Shown here: one piece after another, positions 3,705-22,274 of the stretch
Layout of the letters: each line of letters begins with the position of its first letter
Position numbering within the stretch: position 1 is the first letter of the stretch
Origin: Anaerolineales bacterium
Lineage (GTDB): Bacteria; Chloroflexota; Anaerolineae; Anaerolineales; UBA11858
Direction: 5' to 3'
DNA length: 40,789 nucleotides
Assembly (NCBI GenBank): GCA_024763275.1
Contig: JANTFT010000019.1
Coordinates: forward strand, 1-40,789
The notes under the pieces: model-generated
Databases searched by the model: none
Told to the model about the DNA's origin: nothing
The model's input: the letters and a program-made list of their open reading frames with translations, nothing else
Made by a program: the position numbers and the translations under genes

Positions 3705-5144
3705 TCAAGGCTCCGGCACATCCAGCGGCTGACTGGTATAAATTCCAAAACTTAAATCTGCAGCCCCACTACTTTCTACTCCGCCACTTTTCCAACTATA
3801 ACCGATAAATGACAGAGTAACTGGTTGATTTTCTGCATCCATCGCACCGGGCCTGTAAAAATCAATTGTCATTCTTGGCATTGATATGGTGCCTGATTCC
3901 TGACGGGTGAAATAGAATTGCTCTATATTACTAAATTCATCGGGTCGCTGACATAGCACTGTTGATTCAATTGAAAATGTGCCGCTGCCTTCCCCCACGA
4001 ACCTGAACATTATACCGGACCCATCAGGAGGTGGTACAGCAGGCAGGTCGCTGAATGTGATCCGGGCATTGCCGGTGGCGTTTTCAAAATCATCTATAGT
4101 GGTACCGCTGTAATCCACCCAGCCGGAAGCGGTCAGCGCATCCCAGTCAATTTCCAGATGCACAGCGCCGGAATTAGTATTAAGACCCATTCCAAAGCAA
4201 TAACCTCTATCAGGTTGGGAAGGATGGGCCCACAGGATAATTCCAAAAAATTTATAGGCATCATCATTGGTGAAATCATAGACCGCAGTACCCGACCCTG
4301 AATCGCCCCCGCTGCTGGAGCCGGAATCTGCCTGAGGAGTCTTTTCGCGGGCTTCTCGAGTCGCATCCATTTCTTCCTGATCCATAAGAGCTGCATCCAG
4401 ACCAAACTCGGCTTCGTTGGTTTCCCAAACATGCGGATCATCGGTCGCTTGCCCATCAGCATAAGCAGCTTCCTGCCTCTGGTTGATCCGCTCAGCCAGC
4501 TTCTCCACTTCTTTCTCAAAAAGGGTGTGAACCCGTCTTTTCAAAAGCTGCCGTGTTACCTGCTTTACCAGATTGGCGTTCAGCGGCGCCCCACTCAGGA
4601 CTGCCTCTTTCAGTACCTTTGGAGCTACTTTCTCGATAGCAAACTCGGCCACCTTGCCAGCTCCCTCCATCGTCTTGCCCAACAACCAGCCAGTTGCCCT
4701 CCCCAGCTTTTTGAAACCATGGCGGATAAAACCGAATAATCCTCCCCTCCCGCGGCTGCGTTTGGCAGTCAATGCCTGGGCTTTTTTCTGTAAAGCCTGT
4801 ACCTTGGCTTCCAATTGATTGATCAGTTTTGCTTCCAGGTCCGGATCGTAGTTGCTGCCGGCTTTCAATTTGGCGATCTGATCGGCATACAGCTGGATCA
4901 GTATATCCAGCTCATTGCCTAAACCTGCCTGCTGTGATAGAGACATCAAATGACCCTTCGGCAGCAGAGCAGATTCCACTTCCCCGCCCAGACGCATCTG
5001 AGCTGAGAACATCAGTAATACCGAGTCGTCATACGGATGGGCGATATTGAATGTCAAAACCGGGTTTGTAGATGGTGCCAGGGCGAGCATCAGGCTGGCT
5101 GCTAATACCGTCAAAAGGATCTTCAACAATGATTTACTGGACAT
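3705..5144 (-). CDS. Secreted protein of unknown function with a long basic helical segment
   Basis: ORF 3705-5204. The internal ATG at 5144 (MSSKSLLKILLTVLAASLMLALAP) gives a signal peptide and overlaps the upstream gene end by 11 nt, which suggests translational coupling. Confidence 0.75.
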   Translation of the reverse strand: MSSKSLLKILLTVLAASLMLALAPSTNPVLTFNIAHPYDDSVLLMFSAQMRLGGEVESALLPKGHLMSLSQQAGLGNELDILIQLYADQIAKLKAGSNYDPDLEAKLINQLEAKVQALQKKAQALTAKRSRGRGGLFGFIRHGFKKLGRATGWLLGKTMEGAGKVAEFAIEKVAPKVLKEAVLSGAPLNANLVKQVTRQLLKRRVHTLFEKEVEKLAERINQRQEAAYADGQATDDPHVWETNEAEFGLDAALMDQEEMDATREAREKTPQADSGSSSGGDSGSGTAVYDFTNDDAYKFFGIILWAHPSQPDRGYCFGMGLNTNSGAVHLEIDWDALTASGWVDYSGTTIDDFENATGNARITFSDLPAVPPPDGSGIMFRFVGEGSGTFSIESTVLCQRPDEFSNIEQFYFTRQESGTISMPRMTIDFYRPGAMDAENQPVTLSFIGYSWKSGGVESSGAADLSFGIYTSQPLDVPEP

Positions 5145-5721
5145 GATCTTGCTCCTCAAAACCAATCGCCTCGACGTACACCAGATCCCCCGCCTGCAAG
5201 CCAAAGGTCAGACCGCTGGCATAGTACAGGTCAGCATCTGGCACCAATTCCTTCTCGACCGGCAGGATGAACCACTCCTCCAGCCCGGCCAGGGAAGCCA
5301 GCTGCTTGCGGTCCATGAATGCGAAAAACTGGTCCGGACTGTAGTGGGTCGGGAGGATCTCCGTCTTGGGGATCTCCGCCCGGCTGAGTTCCACTCCGTT
5401 CTCAAAGACCACCTGACTGCCCTGCGCCGGATAAGCCCACTCCTCATAGCGGATAGTTTCCACACTGCCTTGCAGCCCCTCCCTCTGGTAAAACAGAATA
5501 TAGAAACTCTGCGGCAGACCCCATTCATCCACCAGGTCCTGCTGTTGAACGGAATACGCATACCCATCTGGCACACTTGAGCCGAAATCAAAACCGGTCA
5601 CCATTCGGGGCAGATTCTCGAACTCATTGATCCCCAACAACAGCAAACCCGTGAGACAGATACCGGCCACAAAAAACACAAGAATCCTCTCCAAACTGTC
5701 AGTTCCCTTTTTACCTTTCAA
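5134..5721 (-). CDS. Hypothetical membrane-anchored protein
   Basis: 195 aa, N-terminal TM segment ERILVFFVAGICLTGLLLLG. Overlaps the downstream CDS start. Confidence 0.7.
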   Translation of the reverse strand: MKGKKGTDSLERILVFFVAGICLTGLLLLGINEFENLPRMVTGFDFGSSVPDGYAYSVQQQDLVDEWGLPQSFYILFYQREGLQGSVETIRYEEWAYPAQGSQVVFENGVELSRAEIPKTEILPTHYSPDQFFAFMDRKQLASLAGLEEWFILPVEKELVPDADLYYASGLTFGLQAGDLVYVEAIGFEEQDHVQ

Positions 5722-6406
5722 TTTCTCCTCACTTTCTTCTCACACCTCTCGTTATAGCCTACATGCCAGGGTGCAACTTTCAAGGTCCAAAAATATTCCC
5801 TGATAATTAAGACATCTGACATATCCAGAGACCAATTTGCAAAGAATTTATTAAAACCTGCAAAAGCTGTTCAAACCTGCCTTGCGATAGACGACTAAAC
5901 CACCATAATAGCTGCTTACAGACTTCTGCCTTTTCCCGAAAAGTACCCGGACATTTTTTGCCATTCAACCAGAAAGCGCAAAAGAAAATACTATGCTGGA
6001 CTTTATTCATTTGAACAACTAGATATAGGAGGATAAGCTAGGACTAATCTCCACCGAGAGAGGTGTCCATTGCTTACCCTGCCTGCTGAATATGATACTT
6101 TTCTTGCTAATATTCAGCAATATTTTTCCAGATGAATCTGGGAATTGGTAGTGACAATATTGATAGGGGGAAAACTTGTTCCAGGGAAGCGTACAGTGAC
6201 ATTAATCTTGAGGATCATGGGATTGAGCAATGAGAACTGGCTCGAGGAAATTCTGGCGCCTTGCGGCTCACGGTTTTTAAGCCAGAACGCTGTTTCCCCC
6301 GCCCGAAAAGTAACAATAAGTGGCTGTTCTGCGTTATTATAATGAAAATGAGTCCTTCCAGTCTCTTGTGTCCTGGATTTCAAGTGCCACCAATGGGGAG
6401 GTCACT

Positions 6407-7786
6407 ATGAACAATCATCTTAAACGTTTTTTCTTGCTGGCGATTATGGCGCTGCTGTTCGCCGGCCTGGCCTGCAATCTGTCCGGTCTGACTGAAACTG
6501 TTCAGGATAGCGATCTGCAGGCTTCTGTCGAGGCCGCCTTCGTTAATACGGCCGTTGCCCAGACGCTGGCCAGCGCAGAAGGTGCGAAGCCTGGGGAGGG
6601 GGAGGATTCCCAGCCAGCTTCATCCGGGGAGGCCGCGGCTACCCCGGAACCGGAGCCTACCGCGACGATCGAGCACCAGGCCCGCCCCGGGGAGCCCGGC
6701 CGGGCAAATACCTGGGTGATCGATCAATCGACCAAATCCCAGGCGGCCTCCCGGAGTTCCGGCGCTGACCTGTTCAACACCAATTACCTTGAGAGGCCTT
6801 TCACTTCCCAGGTGATGGATTATCAGGGCTATCTGGACCTTACCCGAGTCAACCTGGAGATCTCCCCTCCTTGGGTGTACGTCACCTATGTGCTGGAAGA
6901 ATCCCCCCCACAGGACTCCAACGCGTCTTATGCCCTGGAAGTTGACCTGGAAAGCGATGGCCGGGGAGATTGGCTGATTCGCGGAAAGGTCCCCACCGGG
7001 ACCGATTGGACTACTGAGGGCGCCCAAGCTTTCCGGGATACCAATGGGGATGTCGGGGGCTTCTCACCCATGAACGCCGAAGCTCCCAACCCCAGCTGGG
7101 ATGGCTATGAGACTCTGGTATTCGAGGATCACTTCGGCAGCGACCCTGATGCAGTCTGGGTCCGACGGGACCCCGGCAACCCGAAACAGGTCCAGTTGGC
7201 CTTCAAGTACAGCTTGATCGGCAGTCCCGGGGCCTTCGCTTTCGGTGGGTGGGCGGATGAAGGGCTGGCTGATCCGGCAGCCTTCGATTACAACGATCAC
7301 ATGACCTTTGATCAGGCTGGCTCCCCCTATTCCGAGAGCAGCAAATACCCGATCAAAGAGCTGGCCTCGGTGGATAACACCTGCCGCTGGACCTATGGTT
7401 ACGAGCCCACCACCAGCTTCCCGGGGGTCTGCCCCCTACCAGCTTCCCCCACACCAACACCGCTGCCGGGTTCGATCTCCGGTGGTGTCTATAATGATGT
7501 GAATGTAAACGGATCCCGCAACGGAGGTGAGCCAGGCATCCCTAATGTCACTGTCAGGCTCGGCCAGGGTGCCTGCGGATCCACTGGCTACGCAAACACG
7601 ACAACAGCCAGCAATGGCAGCTTCCAATTTACTGACCTGCCGGCGGGAACCTACTGTGTCTCCGTGAACATCCCTCTAAGCTGCGGCGGCTGGATACCTA
7701 CAACTGTTACCCAGCGGACAGTCACCCTCGGTGCGGGAGAGGATAAGGTGATCGTCTGGTTTGGATACGCCGTTTATGTTTGCTGA
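6407..7786 (+). CDS. Lipoprotein with C-terminal SdrD-B/Cna-B-like domain
   Basis: ATG at 6407 in frame with ORF 6320-7786. Lipobox AGLAC. C-terminal SISGGVYNDVNVNGSRNGGEPGIPNVTVRLGQ...NGSFQFTDLPAGTYCVSV is SdrD_B-like. Confidence 0.82.
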   Translation: MNNHLKRFFLLAIMALLFAGLACNLSGLTETVQDSDLQASVEAAFVNTAVAQTLASAEGAKPGEGEDSQPASSGEAAATPEPEPTATIEHQARPGEPGRANTWVIDQSTKSQAASRSSGADLFNTNYLERPFTSQVMDYQGYLDLTRVNLEISPPWVYVTYVLEESPPQDSNASYALEVDLESDGRGDWLIRGKVPTGTDWTTEGAQAFRDTNGDVGGFSPMNAEAPNPSWDGYETLVFEDHFGSDPDAVWVRRDPGNPKQVQLAFKYSLIGSPGAFAFGGWADEGLADPAAFDYNDHMTFDQAGSPYSESSKYPIKELASVDNTCRWTYGYEPTTSFPGVCPLPASPTPTPLPGSISGGVYNDVNVNGSRNGGEPGIPNVTVRLGQGACGSTGYANTTTASNGSFQFTDLPAGTYCVSVNIPLSCGGWIPTTVTQRTVTLGAGEDKVIVWFGYAVYVC

Positions 7787-13599: not shown

Positions 13600-14250
13600 T
13601 TACCGTCTGACGATGCCCTGCTGCCAGGCATAGACCGCGGCCTGGGTGCGGTCAGCCAGGTGCAGCTTGCTGAGGATGTTGCTGACGTGACCCTTGACGG
13701 TGTTGACACTGATCACCAGCCCGTCAGCGATCTCGCTGTTGGACTTCCCCTTGGCAATCAGCTTAAGCACCTCCATTTCCCGGTCGGTGAGCTCGGTGAA
13801 GGGGTTGAGTTCTTCCCGGTTGGCGCCGTGCAGTTCCTGGATGACCCGGGAAGCGACCCGTGGGTGCAGGGTGGCTTCCCCCTGAGATGCCCGCCTGAGG
13901 GCGTCGGCTAGTTCGTCCATTTTCACGTCCTTGAGTATGTAGGAGATCGCTCCGGCCTGCAGAGCCGGGAATATGTATTCGTCCTGATGGTAAGAAGTCA
14001 GCACCACGATCTTAGTGCGGGGGCTGACGGCTTTGACCTGGCGGGTGGCCTCCACGCCGTCCATCTTGGCCATCACCAGGTCCATCAGCACCACATCCGG
14101 TACGGTTTTCTTGGCCAGCTCAACTGCCTCAGTACCCGATTTGGCTTCCCCGACCACTTCAAAGTCGGGCTGAGAGGCCAGAAAGGCGCTGACCCCGCTG
14201 CGGACCACCTCGTGGTCGTCTACCAGCAATACGGTAATAGGTGTGGACAT
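13600..14250 (-). CDS. NarL/LiaR-family response regulator (REC plus LuxR HTH)
   Basis: VLLVDDHEVVRSGV, VVLMDLVMAKMDG, LTDREMEVLKLIAKGKSNSEIADGLVISVNTVKGHVSNILSKL. Confidence 0.95.
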   Translation of the reverse strand: MSTPITVLLVDDHEVVRSGVSAFLASQPDFEVVGEAKSGTEAVELAKKTVPDVVLMDLVMAKMDGVEATRQVKAVSPRTKIVVLTSYHQDEYIFPALQAGAISYILKDVKMDELADALRRASQGEATLHPRVASRVIQELHGANREELNPFTELTDREMEVLKLIAKGKSNSEIADGLVISVNTVKGHVSNILSKLHLADRTQAAVYAWQQGIVRR

Positions 14251-14263
14251 AGGTTTTCCTTCC

Positions 14264-15847
14264 TCATAAGAGAGAATTTAAGGGTGCTCGAATGGTCAAT
14301 CTGGTCCCCAGTCCGGGCTGACTGATTATTTCCAGGGTTCCGTTTACCAGGTCAGCCCGCTCCTGGATGGATTTCAGCCCGATCCCGTAGGACTGCTCCG
14401 CCGGCTGGAAGCCGATCCCATCATCAGCGATCGAAAGCCGGATCTCCTCCCGGTTGTAAGCCAGCTGGATGTCCACGTTCTTAGCGAAGCTGTGGCGGGC
14501 CACGTTGGAAAGCGCGCCCTGCAGGATGCGGTAGAGGGTCTGCTCGATTTCCAGGGGGATGGTGCGCTCTCCTGTGACCCGGACGGATATGGGAATTCCC
14601 AGCATATTCTCGGTTTCCTCTGCCAGCTGGCGGGCAGCTTTCACCAGCCCCTCTCCCTTGAGGGCCGCCGGGCGCAGCTCGTGGATCAGGTCGGTCAGTT
14701 CGCGCCGCACATCATCCACCAGGCGCTCTGCTTCGGTCAGGTTGGCGACGGCCTGCTCGGGGGCATTGCTGCAAAGGGAATGGGCTGCCGCCAGCTGAGC
14801 GGAGGCGGCGAAAGCCTGCTGCTTGACGCTGTCGTGCAGCTCCCGGGCCAGGCGGTTGCGTTCTTCCATGATGGTGATTTCCTGGCGCTCATTCAGCAGG
14901 TTGTCCATCTGTACGGCCATATTGTTAAGGATATGGCCCAGTTCAGAGAGCTCATCCCGGTTGGGGTCATCCACCAGCACTGTGAAGTTGCCCTGGCTCC
15001 AGGCCCGGGCGGAAGCGGCAACCCGGTCCAGGCGTGAGGTGAGCATTTTAGCGGTCAGGAAGCCGAAAATGATCCCGAACAGCCCTGCTAAGCCAGTGGT
15101 GGCAATGAGAACGATAGCGATCTGGCGGGAAATCTGCTCCCACTGCAAAATTTCAGTGATGCGCGATTTGTGCTGAAAAGCCAGGAAGCCTACTGTATTG
15201 AGGGGATTGTCCTCATCTGGGATGGGCACTACCCCGACGATGACGTTCTCTTCCATGGGTTGGACCAGGACATCATAATCCCGGGAGCCATAGAGCGCTG
15301 CCTGGAGCGGACCTGCCAGACCGGGAATCTCATCGGGGTTGATGATCTCTCCCGGCTTGGTCTGCTGCAGCACACCGTGGGGAATGGAATCGATCAAATT
15401 GCCATCAGTGTCCAGATAGACAATGGACAGGATGTTGGTGTTGCTGGCGTTGATGATGAAGTTGCCGATTTCAATGGGCTTGATGTCCACCACGGTCTGG
15501 GAGAACGGACCCAGGAATTGAGCCAGGCCCTGGTTGTCGGGCGGAGAGCTGGAAAGGAAATGGCTGCCGATGGAGACATATTCGCCCAGAGATATGTCCA
15601 GGCGGTCGATCGCCAGTTTTTCTGCCAGCCGCTGGTCATCAAAGAAGACTTCCTGGGAAGTTGACAGCTGCTGGATGACCTCTTCCTTGGATACCCTGGC
15701 CTCCCGGACAACCCAGATCGTCATCCCCAGAATGCCGAACAGTTCGGCCATCACCAGGGCAATAATGGTCACGCCGAAATAGCTGAGCGTTAATTTCCAG
15801 CGCAGCCGGCTGAATCGATCCAGGAAGGTTGACCAGAATTTGATCAT
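14264..15847 (-). CDS. NarX/LiaS-type sensor histidine kinase (TM, HAMP, HisKA_3, HATPase)
   Basis: HAMP MLTSRLDRVAASARAWSQGNF; H-box EERNRLARELHDSVKQQAF; ATPase LSIADDGIGFQP...GIGLKSIQERADLVNGTLEI. Confidence 0.95.
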   Translation of the reverse strand: MIKFWSTFLDRFSRLRWKLTLSYFGVTIIALVMAELFGILGMTIWVVREARVSKEEVIQQLSTSQEVFFDDQRLAEKLAIDRLDISLGEYVSIGSHFLSSSPPDNQGLAQFLGPFSQTVVDIKPIEIGNFIINASNTNILSIVYLDTDGNLIDSIPHGVLQQTKPGEIINPDEIPGLAGPLQAALYGSRDYDVLVQPMEENVIVGVVPIPDEDNPLNTVGFLAFQHKSRITEILQWEQISRQIAIVLIATTGLAGLFGIIFGFLTAKMLTSRLDRVAASARAWSQGNFTVLVDDPNRDELSELGHILNNMAVQMDNLLNERQEITIMEERNRLARELHDSVKQQAFAASAQLAAAHSLCSNAPEQAVANLTEAERLVDDVRRELTDLIHELRPAALKGEGLVKAARQLAEETENMLGIPISVRVTGERTIPLEIEQTLYRILQGALSNVARHSFAKNVDIQLAYNREEIRLSIADDGIGFQPAEQSYGIGLKSIQERADLVNGTLEIISQPGLGTRLTIRAPLNSLL

Positions 15848-16450: not shown

Positions 16451-17524
16451 TTGGTGGTCCAGTATTCAGTACTTATAGCGGATGGAGATCCCGATTATAT
16501 CCAATACCTGGCTGGCACATTAAAGGCCAACGGATTCAAGACTGCTGGCACCTCGTCGGGGGCCAATGCCCTGCAGCTCTATAAAAAAGAAAACCCGGGC
16601 CTGGTGATTGCCGACCTGGATCTAGCGGAAATGAACGGCCTGGACCTGCTCCAAGCCCTGCGGAACTTCAACCCCCGGGTGAAAATAATCCTGACGACTG
16701 ACTCGGCAACCAAGGAGCTGATCACGCGGGCGTTTCGGATGGGTGCCCTGGATGTCCTTGAAAAACCCATTGACATTGAACTTCTGACCAATAAGATCCG
16801 GGAAACCCTGAGCCGGGAGGACCGTGCTCTGGAAGGTGATTTGAGAATGATGAGTCTGTCCAGCATCATCCAGATCAACTGCGATGAGCGCAATCAGGCC
16901 CAGTTGATTCTGAATCATCAGGGTCGGGAAGGGATGATCTTCTTCAAAGAAGGAGAGATGGTCCACGCTGAATTCGGGGGTTTGATAGGTGAAGAGGCGG
17001 TTTACGCCCTGCTGGGTTGGGAAAAGGGCACTTTCCAGCTCAAAATGGGAGCTGAACCCAGAACCCGGACGATCACTAAGCCCTGGTCGGGAGTTTTGTT
17101 GGAAGGCATGCGGCGCATTGATGAATCCACCGCGGGCTGGAGCGCTGATTGGGAGGAAGACAGTGAGCTTTCCCCCGGAGAAGCCCAGGATGATCTGGCT
17201 CCCCGGATCATCAGATCGATCAGGAGCATCCGGGATGTCAGCAGCGCGATGATCTGCGGGAAGGATGGTACAGTACTTGCTCAGGAAAACGGCGCTGGTG
17301 AGAATGATATTCTGGGGCGGGGCATGTTCGTCAAGGAAAAGAGCGAGCTGATCGGCGGGTTTTTAGATGCCGGCGGCTTCGAGCGGGCTGCGCTTTCCGG
17401 TTCGGGAGGGCGAGTCTATTTGCAGCAGCGGGATGATCATTTAATACTATTGACCTTGAGCAATCGCTCATCAGCTGAATCCGTCTTCGAAAATGTGGAG
17501 ATGATCTACAAGCGCTATGAGTAA
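16451..17524 (+). CDS. Receiver, DUF4388 (PATAN-like) and C-terminal roadblock/LC7-like regulator
   Basis: REC residues present: ADGDPDY, LVIADLDLAEMNG, LTTDS, EKPID. DUF4388-like MMSLSSIIQINCDERNQAQLILNHQGREGMIFFKEGEMVHAEFGGLIGEEAVYALLGWEKGTF. C-terminal IRDVSSAMICGKDGTVLAQ...LIGGFLDAGGFERAALSGSGGRVYLQQRDDHLILLTL is LC7-like. Non-ATG start (TTG/GTG) after AAGGAGA. Confidence 0.85.
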   Translation: MVVQYSVLIADGDPDYIQYLAGTLKANGFKTAGTSSGANALQLYKKENPGLVIADLDLAEMNGLDLLQALRNFNPRVKIILTTDSATKELITRAFRMGALDVLEKPIDIELLTNKIRETLSREDRALEGDLRMMSLSSIIQINCDERNQAQLILNHQGREGMIFFKEGEMVHAEFGGLIGEEAVYALLGWEKGTFQLKMGAEPRTRTITKPWSGVLLEGMRRIDESTAGWSADWEEDSELSPGEAQDDLAPRIIRSIRSIRDVSSAMICGKDGTVLAQENGAGENDILGRGMFVKEKSELIGGFLDAGGFERAALSGSGGRVYLQQRDDHLILLTLSNRSSAESVFENVEMIYKRYE

Positions 17525-17545
17525 GCTTAAGTAAGGAAGGGTATT

Positions 17546-18562
17546 ATGATATTTCCTAGACGCGACGCGATCTACCAGAACCTGAATACTTCCTTTACAA
17601 ACTTTGGAGAACTGCTGGTCGACTTAAAAGAGAACAGTTTTACTGGAGTCGTGCAGGTCAGTTTCTGGGAGTACGAGGGCGTACTGCTCCTGGATAATGG
17701 GAACATCATCAATGCTGTTCAGGAGGATAATGGGGTTGTTATTTCCGGGCAGGAAGCCGTTAAATTGGTGATTGACAAGGCCAAAGAGAAAGATGGCTCT
17801 ATCAGTGTATATAACCAGACCGGGGAAATGGTAACCATGCTGGCCAGCGTGACAAAAAGCAAAGCGGTCTACCAGAACTTGAGCACGGAGTTTACCAGCC
17901 TGGAAGCCCTGATCGGCAAGCTGCAGAATGAAGAACACACCGGTTATATAGAAGTCAAATTGGAGGACAGCCACCAGGTCGGATACATCTTCCTGCTGAC
18001 CGGCCGGGTCATTGATGTCCTGCTGACCGCGGCCGGGGGGGAGGTCACCGGGGTCCATGTGCTCAACCGGATCATGGAGAAGATCTCCTCGACGGGCGCT
18101 GTCTTCAATGTCTACGAATCTGCAGTTGAGGAAGCGCTCTCGGACAGCGAGGTCATCAGGATCAGCTACAATCTACCCCGGCTGCTGGAAACCTGGGGCG
18201 TGGTGATCGGTGCTGTGGAATCCGCTGCTGACTCGCTGCTAAAGCCGGGTGATTTTCTGAATACCTTTAAAGATACATTAATTGCCAACGCAGAAGAATA
18301 TCCTTTCCTGGACCCCTTTGCCGCCAAGTTCCACTACCAGGATGGGGAGGTCACTTTCACCGGCGAGGTGAAAAAAGAGTTCAGCCGGGCGATTGCCAAA
18401 TGCCTGTGGGAGACCGTGGAAGTGCTGGCCGAGAATACCGCCCTGGGCGGCAAGGATTTATTCGGCCCTATCCGGACTGCCATCACGGAGGCCGCCGGAG
18501 AACATCAGGAGCTGATTGACCGCTTCAACATTGCTGTTTTGCTGCCGGAGTTATTTACCTGA
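17546..18562 (+). CDS. Protein with two tandem DUF4388-like units
   Basis: Internal duplication: IYQNLNTSFTNFGELLVDLKENSFTGVVQV... versus VYQNLSTEFTSLEALIGKLQNEEHTGYIEV... Confidence 0.72.
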   Translation: MIFPRRDAIYQNLNTSFTNFGELLVDLKENSFTGVVQVSFWEYEGVLLLDNGNIINAVQEDNGVVISGQEAVKLVIDKAKEKDGSISVYNQTGEMVTMLASVTKSKAVYQNLSTEFTSLEALIGKLQNEEHTGYIEVKLEDSHQVGYIFLLTGRVIDVLLTAAGGEVTGVHVLNRIMEKISSTGAVFNVYESAVEEALSDSEVIRISYNLPRLLETWGVVIGAVESAADSLLKPGDFLNTFKDTLIANAEEYPFLDPFAAKFHYQDGEVTFTGEVKKEFSRAIAKCLWETVEVLAENTALGGKDLFGPIRTAITEAAGEHQELIDRFNIAVLLPELFT

Positions 18563-18574
18563 TTCGGGAAAACC

Positions 18575-18952
18575 ATGAAAGCTGGACTGGGAGAGATCAA
18601 CCTAATACCAGGTGTGTGGGGCAGCCTGCTGTGCACTAACCAGGGTGAGCTGATTGAGAATCTCACTCCGCCCGGGCTGAATAAATCTACCCTGGAGAAT
18701 ATTTCCCGGCATATGGTGGAGCTGCTGTCTGGTACTGTTGATTCTATACCGGGATTGGGAGAAGTTGTCCTCCACTACCAGGACAGGAAGGTATTCGCTG
18801 TTGACTTGGAGCGGGCTGTCCTGATAGTGGTCTGCACGCCCAGTGTGGATATCTCCCTGCTGCGGCTGAACATCAATGTGGTGCTGACGCGCTGGGAGGA
18901 CGATCCCGGCGTCCAGAAACGGCTCCGGGAAAGATTTGTAGAGAGGATATAA
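18575..18952 (+). CDS. Roadblock/LC7-like protein
   Basis: 125 aa: LIPGVWGSLLCTNQGELIENLTPPGLNKSTLENISRHMVELL...GLGEVVLHYQDRKVFAVDLERAVLIVVC; spacing fits roadblock/LC7. Confidence 0.7.
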   Translation: MKAGLGEINLIPGVWGSLLCTNQGELIENLTPPGLNKSTLENISRHMVELLSGTVDSIPGLGEVVLHYQDRKVFAVDLERAVLIVVCTPSVDISLLRLNINVVLTRWEDDPGVQKRLRERFVERI

Positions 18953-19011
18953 AAGTAAGCTGAGGGAATACTGAGGAACCCAGTACTTATTCATTGAGTC
19001 AGGAGAATAAT

Positions 19012-19803
19012 ATGGTTGAAGTTCTAAAAGGAAATCTTGCCCAACTCTCTCTGCTGGACATCCTGCGCATGCTCAGCTCTTCCGGCCGTAGCGGCCGACT
19101 GGATGTGCGCCAGGGCAGTAAGACCGGAGAGATCTATCTGCGGCGAGGGAACGTGGTCCACGCCGTGACAGGTGTCCAGATGGGCGAGAAAGGCGTGTAC
19201 ACCTTGATGGGCTGGATGGAGGGAGAGTTCAGCTTCACCCCCGACGTGGAGGCTCCCGAGCAGTCCATTGAAACAGCTACTGAACAGCTGATGCTGGAAG
19301 CTTCCCGCCAGGCAGCACAGTGGGGGGACATCAAGGATGTGGTTTCCTCCACTGACGCGATATTCAACATCAGTCCTTCCGGGTCCACCAACACGGTCAG
19401 CTTGAAGCCGATCGAGTGGCAGGTGCTGACCCAGATCAACGGGGAGAAGTCAGTAGCGGATATTGCGGAAGCCCTGGACCTGCAGGAATTTGAAGTGGCC
19501 AAAATCGTCTACAGCCTGACTACCGCGGGTTTGCTGCATGAGGTTTCAGACGTTCAGCGGACATTCAAGGAGATCGTTGAGGAAAGCTTCTTTGAGGTGT
19601 TGGCCGACAATTTCACAGAGGTGATGGGTCCGATTGGACCGGTCATCATCGAGGATGAAATCAAACTGATGGGGGAAGCCCGGGATGCTTTTCCGCAAGC
19701 CAAGGCGGCAGAGCTGGTTGAACGGGTCAGTCTGGAGATCGTAGACAGCCGCAAGCGGGCAGAGTTTCAGAAGAAGATGGTGCTGGTATTAAAGGGGAGT
19801 TAG
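19012..19803 (+). CDS. DUF4388 plus winged-helix-like protein
   Basis: ATG at 19012 after AGGAG (the track start at 18994 is TTG). MVEVLKGNLAQLSLLDILRMLSSSGRSGRLDVRQGSKTGEIYLRRGNVVHAVTGVQMGEKGVYTLMGWMEGEFSF is DUF4388; LTQINGEKSVADIAEALDLQEFEVAKIVYSLTTAGLL is winged-helix-like. Confidence 0.85.
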   Translation: MVEVLKGNLAQLSLLDILRMLSSSGRSGRLDVRQGSKTGEIYLRRGNVVHAVTGVQMGEKGVYTLMGWMEGEFSFTPDVEAPEQSIETATEQLMLEASRQAAQWGDIKDVVSSTDAIFNISPSGSTNTVSLKPIEWQVLTQINGEKSVADIAEALDLQEFEVAKIVYSLTTAGLLHEVSDVQRTFKEIVEESFFEVLADNFTEVMGPIGPVIIEDEIKLMGEARDAFPQAKAAELVERVSLEIVDSRKRAEFQKKMVLVLKGS

Positions 19804-19859
19804 CGTTCCCTACACTGCCAGTTTAATGGACTGGCATTAAATACTGCAGGAGGCAATCG

Positions 19860-20660
19860 ATGCGACTTACATATATTAGAAGATTAATGGTCATTCAGGC
19901 TGTGATCGTGCTGCTGCTGGTTATTTCAGCGTTTTTCACCGCCACAAATTTGAACCGGTCCCTGGCTCTGACCATTGAGCTCACTAACCTTCAGGAAGGG
20001 GTGCAGGCAACGGGCAATATCGCGGACGCTTTGGAAGAAGAACGCATTGCTATTGGCCAATACCCCCTCACCGGCAGCGAAGATCTGCTTACCAGAATCG
20101 CAGACGCGCAGGCTGTTTACAATGAGAACTGGCAGGTTGTCACCCGGGTTTTCGGGGCCGAACAATCCCAGCTGCTGGCCGACATTGAAACCAGCCGGGC
20201 GACCTATGAAGATTATCTCAACAATATTATTACGGAATATCAATCCAACCCGGAGAACAATGATTCGGCTTCCTTTCTGAGAGACGCCATTAATTATTAT
20301 TTGCAGAATCTGGGTCCCAAGATCGCTGACCTGTCCGAACCCGCTTTTCAGAAATTGGTTTCCCAGGTGGAAACCGAGCGGGCGCGGGCTAAAAGGTTAG
20401 CAATTTTCTCCGGGGTTGCCCTCGCTTTTAGCGTCATCGTGGGTGTTATGGTTGTGGTGCTGGTGGCTGTGGTCCTGCTGTTCAGTGGGAGAATGATCCA
20501 GGCCATCCAGAATATTGTGGACGCCACCAACCAGATCAGCCGCGGTGACATGGATGCCTACATTGATGTGGACCAGGGTGGTGACATCGGAGATCTAGCC
20601 CAGGCTATTGACCGGATGCGCACCAGCCTCCGGGCGGCTATTGAGCGCCTGCGCCGCTGA
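19860..20660 (+). CDS. Four-helix-bundle/HAMP membrane sensor lacking an output domain
   Basis: Two TM segments flank an extracytoplasmic helical region. HAMP: MIQAIQNIVDATNQISRGDMDAYIDVDQGGDIGDLAQAIDRMRTSLRAAIERLRR, then stop. Confidence 0.85.
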   Translation: MRLTYIRRLMVIQAVIVLLLVISAFFTATNLNRSLALTIELTNLQEGVQATGNIADALEEERIAIGQYPLTGSEDLLTRIADAQAVYNENWQVVTRVFGAEQSQLLADIETSRATYEDYLNNIITEYQSNPENNDSASFLRDAINYYLQNLGPKIADLSEPAFQKLVSQVETERARAKRLAIFSGVALAFSVIVGVMVVVLVAVVLLFSGRMIQAIQNIVDATNQISRGDMDAYIDVDQGGDIGDLAQAIDRMRTSLRAAIERLRR

Positions 20661-20693
20661 AGATAATCAGAGAAAACCACAGAGGAAACTATC

Positions 20694-21182
20694 ATGAATC
20701 AAGGATTACACATACCTGAGGAGCTGCTGGACCGGATTGATCATATCCTGGCCCACCTGGCTGAAAAAGCCCATACCGACAGCATCGTGCTGGCGGATAT
20801 CAGCGGCCAGGTAATCTCCATTCAGGGCGTGATGGATGAAGGCACTCCCGCGGTGGTAGCTGCTCTGGCTGCCGGGGACGTGGCAGCCATGTCTGAACTC
20901 TCTAACCGCATTGGGGAATCCGATCCCCATGGATCTTTCTTCCACGAAGGCGAAACTAAAAGCATCTACCTGCATAATATTGCGGGAAGTTTCATCTTGA
21001 TCGTCATTTTCCGGTCGGAAACACCTATTGGCCTGGTGCGGCTGTTTGCCAAGAGAGCGGTGGAACAGCTCCTGCCGGTCACCGAAGAATTCGAGGAAAT
21101 CGTCGGCCCTCCTGCTGATTATGCGCCGGATGACTTTCGTAAAGGCATCACCCAGGAATTGGACGATACATTTACCGAGTAA
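20694..21182 (+). CDS. Roadblock/LC7 domain protein
   Basis: DRIDHILAHLAEKAHTDSIVLADISGQVISIQGVMDEGTPAVVAALAAGDVAAMSEL...GSFFHEGETKSIYLHNIAGSFILIVIF. Confidence 0.85.
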   Translation: MNQGLHIPEELLDRIDHILAHLAEKAHTDSIVLADISGQVISIQGVMDEGTPAVVAALAAGDVAAMSELSNRIGESDPHGSFFHEGETKSIYLHNIAGSFILIVIFRSETPIGLVRLFAKRAVEQLLPVTEEFEEIVGPPADYAPDDFRKGITQELDDTFTE

Positions 21183-21198
21183 GGATTTTATTTGAAGG

Positions 21199-21798
21199 AT
21201 GTTTATTAATTGGAAGTTGCGAGAGATCAACCTGAAGATCGTATATTATGGTCCTTCCCTGAGCGGAAAAACGTCCTCCCTGCAGTATATCCACCAGCGA
21301 ACGCGCCCGGACCGCCGGGGAGAATTGATCTCGCTTAAGACCCGCGAAGACCGCACCCTGTATTTTGATTATATGCAGTTCGAGATGGGAGAAATCAGCG
21401 GTTTGAAACCTCGCTTTAATATCTATACTGTCCCCGGCCAGGTATATTACCGGGGCACCCGCAAGCTGGTATTGAAAGGTGTGGATGGGATTGTCTTTGT
21501 AGCGGATTCCCAGATCAGACGTCTGAACGAAAACATAGCAGCCATCAATGACCTCTTCGAGGATCTGGAAGAGTTGGGCTTTAAGCCGGATGAAGTGCCG
21601 CTGATCCTGCAGTGCAATAAGCGCGACCTTCCGGAGATCATGCCTGTGCTCGCCTTGAAGGAATCTTTGGGCTTGAACGGTGTTCCTACCTTTGAAAGTG
21701 TGGCGGTGGATGGGGCAGGTGTGCTGGATGGATTGAAGAATATTATCAGCCAGGTAGTGACCAAGGCGCGGGGAAAGATCTATTCCAGTCCTGCCTAG
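21199..21798 (+). CDS. MglA-type small Ras-like GTPase
   Basis: P-loop YYGPSLSGKTSS; switch II YTVPGQVYYRGTRKLVLKGVDGIVFVADSQ; G4 CNKRDLP. The pattern strongly resembles bacterial MglA proteins. Confidence 0.95.
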   Translation: MFINWKLREINLKIVYYGPSLSGKTSSLQYIHQRTRPDRRGELISLKTREDRTLYFDYMQFEMGEISGLKPRFNIYTVPGQVYYRGTRKLVLKGVDGIVFVADSQIRRLNENIAAINDLFEDLEELGFKPDEVPLILQCNKRDLPEIMPVLALKESLGLNGVPTFESVAVDGAGVLDGLKNIISQVVTKARGKIYSSPA

Positions 21799-21809
21799 GA
21801 GAAGAAGAA

Positions 21810-22199
21810 ATGACCCGTCATTCACAGGGGATCGAAACGCCAGACACTTTTACTGAGATCCTGGAGGAGATGAATCAGGAGGGAGGTTTTTACCGTTCTG
21901 TTTTGGCAACCTCGGAAGGGCTGCCGATTGCCTCAGCCCCTGAGGAGCCAGACCAGGAGCTGGCCAGCGCCATGATCGCCATGCTCCAGAAAGTTGGTGT
22001 AGAAACCCAGGACCACCTTAGTCTGGCACCTGTAGATGAGGTGACCATCCGCACGGAAGAAAAGGAACACCTGGTTTGCCGGACGATCCCCTCCGGAAAG
22101 GATTGGGTCTGCCTCTGTGCCCTGGTACCCCCCGGTCAGTACTACCGCCGGGCAACCAACAGGGCAGTCCGGCGCATCCGGGAGATGATCGAAGAATAG
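21810..22199 (+). CDS. Roadblock/LC7 domain protein
   Basis: FTEILEEMNQEGGFYRSVLATSEGLPIASAPEEPDQELASAMIAMLQKVG...LVCRTIPSGKDWVCLCALVP. Confidence 0.85.
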   Translation: MTRHSQGIETPDTFTEILEEMNQEGGFYRSVLATSEGLPIASAPEEPDQELASAMIAMLQKVGVETQDHLSLAPVDEVTIRTEEKEHLVCRTIPSGKDWVCLCALVPPGQYYRRATNRAVRRIREMIEE

Positions 22200-22218
22200 A
22201 TTTGCTATTTCAAAATAA

Positions 22219-22247
22219 AAGGCTGCCCGGTCGTCGGGCAGCCTTTT
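22219..22247 (+). terminator. Rho-independent terminator closing the MglA/roadblock cluster
   Basis: AAGGCTGCCCG-gtcgt-CGGGCAGCCTTTTT after the stop at 22199. Confidence 0.92.
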
Positions 22248-22274
22248 TGGTTAATGGGGTTGGTAAAAAGAGGA

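What the first reader, a model, noticed from the sequence alone, without database searches (positions are those of the whole stretch)
16451..22199. Compact eight-gene MglA GTPase / roadblock / DUF4388 signalling cluster
Seen: eight tightly spaced + strand genes ending in one strong terminator (22219-22247). In order they are REC-DUF4388-LC7, tandem DUF4388, LC7, DUF4388-wHTH, HAMP membrane protein, LC7, MglA-type GTPase, LC7. Established: MglB-type roadblock proteins act as GAPs for MglA GTPases in Myxococcus and Thermus polarity control. DUF4388 and PATAN-type domains occur in regulators but are poorly characterised. Inference: this is a complete receptor-to-GTPase switch with several candidate roadblock regulators per GTPase. 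I am not aware of a described pathway with this exact composition.
Basis: partly seen in the sequence, partly recalled or inferred. Interest (0 to 1): 0.85.

Follow-up and report, generated by a model that had tools for sequence, protein, structure and literature searches.

The report
Receptor-coupled MglA GTPase switch operon
An uncultured Chloroflexota bacterium carries a conserved eight-gene operon that appears to wire a membrane sensor without a kinase domain to a small Ras-like GTPase through adaptor proteins; this resembles the switches that steer moving bacteria, but the sensor-to-switch wiring has not been described as far as I could find.

Summary
Eight co-directional genes with gaps of 11-56 nt end at a strong terminator. 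All eight domain assignments are supported, the weak ones (LC7 of g1, g3, tandem DUF4388 of g2) by profile-profile comparison. g7 is a Group 1 MglA (TVPGQ and intrinsic Arg finger). g6 is an MglB homologue with the acidic C-terminal helix. g8, g3 and the LC7 of g1 are shorter accessory roadblocks.

Synteny is conserved in 7 MglA-bearing species of the genus and in part far beyond it. New here: the receptor g5 stops just after HAMP. Its sensor is swapped between lineages (4HB or dCache), but a terminal SLxAAIERLR tail is invariant. In 298 class genomes the tailed receptor and the wHTH/C-terminal part of g4 occur in exactly the same nine genomes, and the pair persists where MglA was not found. 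I infer that the receptor tail signals through g4 to the roadblock/GTPase core.

A type IVa pilus is the likeliest output in this genus (6 of 7 MglA+, 0 of 14 MglA- genomes in the family), but class-wide MglA and PilT show no association. PATAN genes near MglA were noted before (Wuichet 2014). Verdict: new variant of a known kind. All functional steps are inferred.

The parts
16451..17524 (+). g1: response regulator, REC - DUF4388/PATAN - LC7 (phospho-acceptor motif ADLDLAEMNG present)
   Evidence: Pfam; LC7 part by iterative profile and hhalign
17546..18562 (+). g2: two divergent DUF4388 repeats plus a conserved C-terminal domain (YPFLDPFA motif)
   Evidence: AF2 pLDDT 80.7 with repeated beta/alpha units
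18575..18952 (+). g3: divergent stand-alone roadblock/LC7 protein
   Evidence: no Pfam hit but hhalign E 2e-16 against g8, PDB roadblock hit 7e-5, orthologue in L075 matches Robl_LC7 at 2e-4
18994..19803 (+). g4: DUF4388 - acidic winged helix - conserved C-terminal helical domain ('W4'); proposed adaptor for the receptor tail
   Evidence: wHTH net charge -5
19860..20660 (+). g5: membrane receptor, 4HB_MCP-like sensor - TM - HAMP - SLRAAIERLRR tail, no output domain
20694..21182 (+). g6: MglB homologue (roadblock plus acidic C-terminal helix QELDDTF), predicted GAP with possible exchange role
   Evidence: PDB MglB 8e-18 over residues 7-161; NF052242 63 bits, under its cut-off of 200; pN/pS 0.07
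21199..21798 (+). g7: MglA small GTPase, Group 1 motifs (GPSLSGKT, DRT Arg finger R52, TVPGQ, NKRD)
   Evidence: PDB MglA 8e-61; motif definitions PMC4316618; only MglA found in the genome
21810..22199 (+). g8: accessory roadblock/LC7 protein without MglB's C-terminal extension
22217..22248 (.). strong bidirectional terminator hairpin between convergent genes

Best explanation
The operon encodes a receptor-coupled MglA GTPase switch. Shown from sequence: g7 has all Group 1 MglA catalytic motifs; g6 is MglB-like, including the acidic C-terminal helix; g5 is a transmembrane sensor-HAMP protein that ends in an invariant helical tail and has no kinase; g1 carries a phosphorylatable REC; g1, g2 and g4 carry DUF4388/PATAN modules. 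Inferred, in order: (1) a periplasmic cue changes the HAMP signalling helix of g5; (2) its SLxAAIERLR tail docks on the C-terminal domain of g4, which acts as an adaptor rather than a DNA-binding repressor; (3) g4, with the DUF4388 protein g2 and the accessory roadblocks g3 and g8, sets the activity or place of the MglB (g6), which switches MglA between GTP and GDP states; (4) phosphorylation of g1, by a kinase encoded elsewhere, is a second input; (5) MglA-GTP acts on a surface machine, in this genus most plausibly the type IVa pilus encoded elsewhere in the genome.
For: g7 and g6 match MglA and MglB structures over full length and are the most constrained genes. The C-terminal QELDDTF of g6 is conserved in the genus and matches the acidic MglB helix known to bind MglA (PMC6785124). 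Synteny: the order is kept in genus members L037, L040 and L050; in L038 and L041 g5 has moved to the 3' end; L039 is truncated at its 5' end. g1-g5 are in the same order in G005 of another family (L132). Receptor tail: invariant in 12 clusters while the sensor is 4HB in some and dCache in others. In 298 class genomes the tail scores >= 86 bits in nine genomes, next best 60; full-length W4 scores >= 125 bits in exactly the same nine, next best 52 and wHTH only. Eight of the nine are MglA+, against 46 of 298 overall (p = 1.5e-6). The tail/W4 pair persists in G516 (closed genome) and G292, where no MglA was found; W4 keeps its C-terminal domain where the wHTH is lost (L053). g4's wHTH is acidic or neutral in the 16 clusters that have it. 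Output: a T4aP locus with PilB, PilC, PilM, PilN, PilD and PilT. T4aP motors in 6 of 7 MglA+ and 0 of 14 MglA- genomes of the family (p = 1.3e-4). MglA controls T4aP in Myxococcus (PMC7519303 abstract). PATAN regulators bind PilB in cyanobacteria.
Against: No biochemistry. The tail/g4 contact is inferred from co-occurrence only. The nine genomes fall in four families (six genomes in one), so they are not nine independent events, and the score thresholds were set after seeing the gaps. Homologues of W4's wHTH alone occur widely. Class-wide, MglA and true PilT do not associate (2 of 46 MglA+ against 18 of 252 others, p = 0.75). G005, which has a window-type g1-g5 cluster, has no T4aP PilT, and G305 in the genus lacks T4aP motors. 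The T4aP link in the family may be shared ancestry. No effector and no histidine kinase lie in the cluster. Genomes are draft MAGs, so absences are soft.
Confidence: 0.5

Rival explanations
1. Transcriptional output: g4 is a DNA-binding regulator whose activity is set by receptor, roadblocks and GTPase, so the system controls genes rather than a motility machine.
For: g4 has a Pfam winged helix. Group 3 MglA systems include a REC + wHTH protein and were proposed to regulate transcription (PMC4316618). Conservon cvn8 regulates specialised metabolism (title of PMC8510531).
Against: The wHTH is acidic or neutral in 16 clusters and is lost in L053 while the C-terminal domain stays. Fold search gave no significant DNA-binding match.
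Confidence: 0.2
2. The same switch, but acting on something other than T4aP (Tad pili, envelope or filament polarity, secretion); the T4aP correlation is ancestry.
For: Class-wide no MglA-PilT association. Most MglA clusters are in genomes without T4aP PilT, while PilT-like/Tad ATPases are widespread.
Against: Within the family the match is 6/7 against 0/14, and the closest MglA outside the genus (G009) also sits in a genome with PilT.
Confidence: 0.4
3. The receptor acts directly on the neighbouring MglB (g6) rather than through g4.
For: The g5 gene lies next to g6 in most clusters.
Against: The tailed receptor is kept with g4 in G516 and G292, where no MglA or MglB lies near and no MglA was found. 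In L038 and L041 g5 has moved away from g6.
Confidence: 0.15
4. A loose cluster of unrelated signalling genes.
For: Chloroflexota genomes are rich in REC and HAMP genes (many hits).
Against: Order conserved across species and, in part, across families with 33-50% protein identity; a rare tail/W4 pair shared by the same nine of 298 genomes.
Confidence: 0.04

Closest known systems
Group 1 MglA/MglB polarity module (Myxococcus xanthus, Thermus)
   Same: MglA motifs incl. TVPGQ and Arg finger; adjacent MglB with acidic C-terminal helix; additional roadblock paralogue(s) as with MglC; link to a response regulator
   Different: In Myxococcus the partners are encoded elsewhere; here they form one operon with a HAMP receptor and three DUF4388 proteins. 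No RomR-, RomX- or SgmX-like gene recognised in the cluster
Actinomycetota conservon (Cvn, Group 2 MglA)
   Same: one operon with a HAMP membrane sensor, roadblock, a conserved protein of poorly known function and an MglA-family GTPase; receptor with a conserved C-terminal peptide (LPxR there, SLxAAIERLR here)
   Different: CvnA has a histidine kinase module, g5 has none; the GTPase is Group 1, not Group 2; no DUF742; DUF4388 and REC proteins added
Group 3 MglA systems (beta/gamma-proteobacteria)
   Same: REC, wHTH, MglA and one or two MglB in one neighbourhood (PMC4316618)
   Different: There REC and wHTH are in one protein and the GTPase carries GTPGQ; no receptor or DUF4388 described
PATAN response regulators of cyanobacteria (PixG, PilG, TaxP2, PatA)
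   Same: DUF4388/PATAN plus REC in one protein (g1); several bind the T4P motor PilB
   Different: domain order reversed, an LC7 added, encoded with a GTPase
DUF4388-wHTH plus GTPGQ-type GTPase gene pair in other genomes of the class (e.g. L147)
   Same: g4-like N-terminal architecture beside an MglA-family GTPase
   Different: GTPase has GTPGQ (Group 5-like); g4's C-terminal domain and the tailed receptor were not detected there

Membership tests
MglA Group 1 | P-loop, TVPGQ in G3, Arg next to the G2 Thr, NKxD in G4 | tested here: met
   GPSLSGKT, TVPGQ, DRT (R52), NKRD in g7; conserved in 12 clusters apart from NKCD in L069; definitions
MglA Group 1 | position in the MglA family tree | not tested
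   no tree built with reference groups; assignment rests on motifs and the MglA PDB match 8e-61
MglB | roadblock/LC7 domain encoded within four genes of mglA | tested here: met
   g6 adjacent to g7; PDB MglB 8e-18
MglB | D/E-rich C-terminal helix beyond the roadblock fold, with basic MglA alpha5 | tested here: met
   QELDDTF in g6 aligned to MglB DIDNLF; Lys/Arg in the g7 C-terminal helix; literature. The motif is weaker in the extended clusters
MglB | NCBIfam MglB equivalog score over cut-off | tested here: not met
   NF052242 63 bits against a cut-off of 200: a homologue, not the Thermus equivalog
MglB | GAP activity on MglA | not testable with these tools
   biochemistry needed
Actinomycetota conservon | CvnA histidine kinase module | tested here: not met
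   g5 has 4HB-HAMP only and ends after HAMP
Actinomycetota conservon | CvnC DUF742 protein | tested here: not met
   no DUF742 match among the eight proteins
Actinomycetota conservon | Group 2 GTPase (GTPGQ, no Arg finger) | tested here: not met
   TVPGQ and Arg finger present
Group 3 MglA system | single REC + wHTH protein with a GTPGQ-type MglA | tested here: not met
   REC and wHTH in different genes, GTPase TVPGQ
DUF4388/PATAN proteins | PF14332 over cut-off | tested here: met
   g1 76 bits, g4 87 bits, g2 29 bits; cut-off 25

The most novel reading that the evidence does not exclude
A previously undescribed class of bacterial transmembrane receptor that, instead of a kinase, signals through a conserved HAMP-proximal tail and a dedicated winged-helix adaptor to small Ras-family GTPases. 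The GTPase can be MglA (as in the window) or, in relatives, a Rab-like GTPase fused to a receiver domain (for example L131, where REC-Ras, W4 adaptor and tailed receptor lie in a row with no MglA).
Probability: 0.35. Interest if true: 0.85.

Novelty: new variant of a known kind. Interest (0 to 1): 0.62.

Why it matters
How extracellular signals reach MglA-type GTPases is poorly resolved: in Myxococcus the sensor and GTPase are linked by a long, dispersed chain, and DUF4388/PATAN is still listed as a domain of unknown function. Here receptor, response regulator, PATAN proteins, roadblocks and GTPase sit in one conserved operon, and comparative genomics names one testable contact (receptor tail with g4). 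If true, it is a compact bacterial counterpart of receptor-to-small-GTPase signalling, and in related lineages it may couple to a two-component/Rab-like fusion protein.

Tried and rejected
Viral contigs: no relative of the GTPase. Anti-phage defence: no meaningful PADLOC hit. Fold search of the g4 and g2 models against the PDB: nothing at E <= 0.001; weak GATOR/KICSTOR and sliding-clamp matches were ignored. Homology of the C-terminal domains of g2 and g4: rejected (hhalign probability 0.4%). General MglA-T4aP link across the class: rejected (p = 0.75). Adjacent NarL-type kinase/regulator pair at 13600-15847 as the system's kinase: not supported, opposite strand with its own regulator, and the upstream gene differs in L041 and L050. 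Complex prediction (GTPase with each LC7) was not possible with the tools.
Full report
OBSERVATION. The window is contig C19 of a 2.55-Mb, 91% complete genome. In that genome this is the only MglA detected and the only place where PF14332 was detected; two other LC7 genes lie on other contigs. Pfam confirms REC, DUF4388, wHTH, HAMP, LC7 and GTPase directly for most genes. Three assignments were weak or missing and were tested by profile-profile comparison: g3 is an LC7 protein (E 2e-16 against g8), the two halves of g2 are repeats of one family related to DUF4388 (E about 1e-5), and the LC7 of g1 belongs with the others. All eight genes are under purifying selection against the L037 species (pN/pS 0.07-0.36).

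WHAT EACH PART IS. g7 matches Myxococcus MglA structures at 8e-61 and has the defining Group 1 motifs of Wuichet and Sogaard-Andersen (PMC4316618): TVPGQ and an Arg next to the switch-I Thr. g6 matches MglB structures over residues 7-161 (8e-18), including the acidic C-terminal helix that in Myxococcus binds MglA and promotes exchange (PMC6785124). It scores only 63 bits on the Thermus MglB equivalog, so it is a homologue rather than that equivalog. g8 and g3 are short roadblocks without that extension. Of the roadblocks, g6 is therefore the probable GAP and the rest are probably accessory, as MglC is in Myxococcus (PMC7949163 abstract). g1 has a phosphorylatable REC (motif ADLDLAEMNG, read from the sequence). 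g5 is a membrane sensor that ends right after HAMP.

CONSERVATION. In the genus, 7 of 10 species have the MglA; 0 of 11 other genomes of the family and 0 of 19 sampled genomes of the order outside that family do, which suggests acquisition or patchy loss. The gene order is the same in L037, L040 and L050; g5 has moved downstream of g8 in L038 and L041; L039 starts inside g2. In G005, of another family, g1-g5 occur in the same order (L132). An extended form occurs in L048, L064, L069, L074 and L075: REC-Ras, DUF4388-LC7, 2xDUF4388, LC7, wHTH-C, dCache-HAMP, MglB, MglA, extra genes, LC7s. Related MglA genes occur in about 46 of 298 class genomes when only the stronger matches are counted.

THE RECEPTOR TAIL. 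Alignment of g5 across 12 clusters shows that the sensor differs (4HB-type in the window group, dCache in the extended group) while the HAMP end and a tail SLxAAIERLR are invariant. A profile of HAMP plus tail found 11 hits at 86 bits or more in nine of 298 class genomes, all in open frames of 273-431 aa, and then a drop to 60 bits. A profile of the wHTH plus C-terminal domain of g4 (W4) found full-length hits at 125 bits or more in exactly the same nine genomes, then a drop to 52 bits with wHTH-only matches. The pair stays together where the rest is gone: G516, a closed genome of another class with no detectable MglA, has receptor, g2, g3 and g4 in a row; G292 has RR, REC-Ras, W4 and receptor and no MglA. 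In L053 the wHTH is missing but the C-terminal domain of W4 is kept. I infer that the C-terminal domain of g4 is the direct partner of the receptor tail. Caveats: six of the nine genomes belong to one family, thresholds were chosen after seeing the gaps, and some genomes are incomplete.

g4 AS ADAPTOR. Its wHTH carries a net charge between -5 and 0 in the 16 clusters that have it. AF2 gave a usable model (pLDDT 82.6) but no significant fold match. An adaptor role is more likely than DNA binding, but this is inference.

OUTPUT. The genome has a T4aP locus on contig C1 (PilB with an MshEN domain, PilC, N-methyl pilin, PilN, PilM, PilD, PilT). In the family, T4aP motor genes occur in 6 of 7 MglA+ genomes and in 0 of 14 MglA- genomes (Fisher p = 1.3e-4, within the genus p = 0.03; not corrected for phylogeny). 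MglA stimulates T4aP in Myxococcus (PMC7519303), and PATAN regulators bind PilB in cyanobacteria. Across the class there is no association of MglA with PilT (2 of 46 against 18 of 252, p = 0.75). T4aP is thus a fair hypothesis for this genus and not a property of the system.

PRIOR ART. PATAN genes near Group 1 and 5 MglA and near MglB were noted in 2014 and 2006. Conservons link HAMP-kinase, roadblock, CvnC and GTPase in Actinomycetota (PMC13343842, PMC8510531). Searches of the paper library for DUF4388, PATAN, MglA and Chloroflexi found no description of this operon, its receptor tail or the REC-Ras fusion. The library holds only open-licence papers, so absence is not proof.

JUDGEMENT. The mechanism is inferred throughout.

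Noticed in passing
L075:4539-5486 (+), L048:3450-4382, L064, L069, L074, L131:6448-7374, L133: REC domain fused to a Ras/Rab-like GTPase (PF00071 E 3e-40; best PDB match yeast Sec4, 4e-29), beside DUF4388/LC7/MglA genes or, in L131, only a response regulator, W4 and the tailed receptor. No description found in one literature search.
   Followed up: partly
L147:967-2343 (G010) and, by coordinates, G028:C301, G062:C24, G239:C116, G229:C269, G249:C530: DUF4388-wHTH gene next to a GTPGQ-type (Group 5-like) GTPase; wHTH matches of this kind occur in about 140 of 298 class genomes. Only L147 was read in full.
   Followed up: partly
L125:7785-12291 (G516, closed genome, other class): Tailed HAMP receptor, 2xDUF4388-C, LC7 and DUF4388-wHTH in a row with no MglA detectable in the genome.
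   Followed up: partly
L042:6739-8894, L051, L060, L073: Recurrent pair beside MglA clusters: a conserved ~440-aa protein without Pfam hit and a class-II glutamine amidotransferase-like protein (~265 aa).
   Followed up: no
L053:2732-4387 and 4927-7335: Tandem copies of the tailed receptor and two MglA genes in one cluster.
   Followed up: no
L091 (C70) and L092 (C11) of the same genome: Two further stand-alone LC7 genes outside the operon, closer to the Pfam consensus than those in the operon; partners unknown.
   Followed up: no
window 13600-15847 (-): NarL-type HAMP histidine kinase and LuxR-type response regulator pair upstream on the opposite strand; upstream neighbours differ in L041 and L050.
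   Followed up: partly
L075:10577-11239: XylR_N/V4R-domain protein inserted between MglA and the last LC7 genes in an extended cluster, a possible small-molecule input.
   Followed up: no
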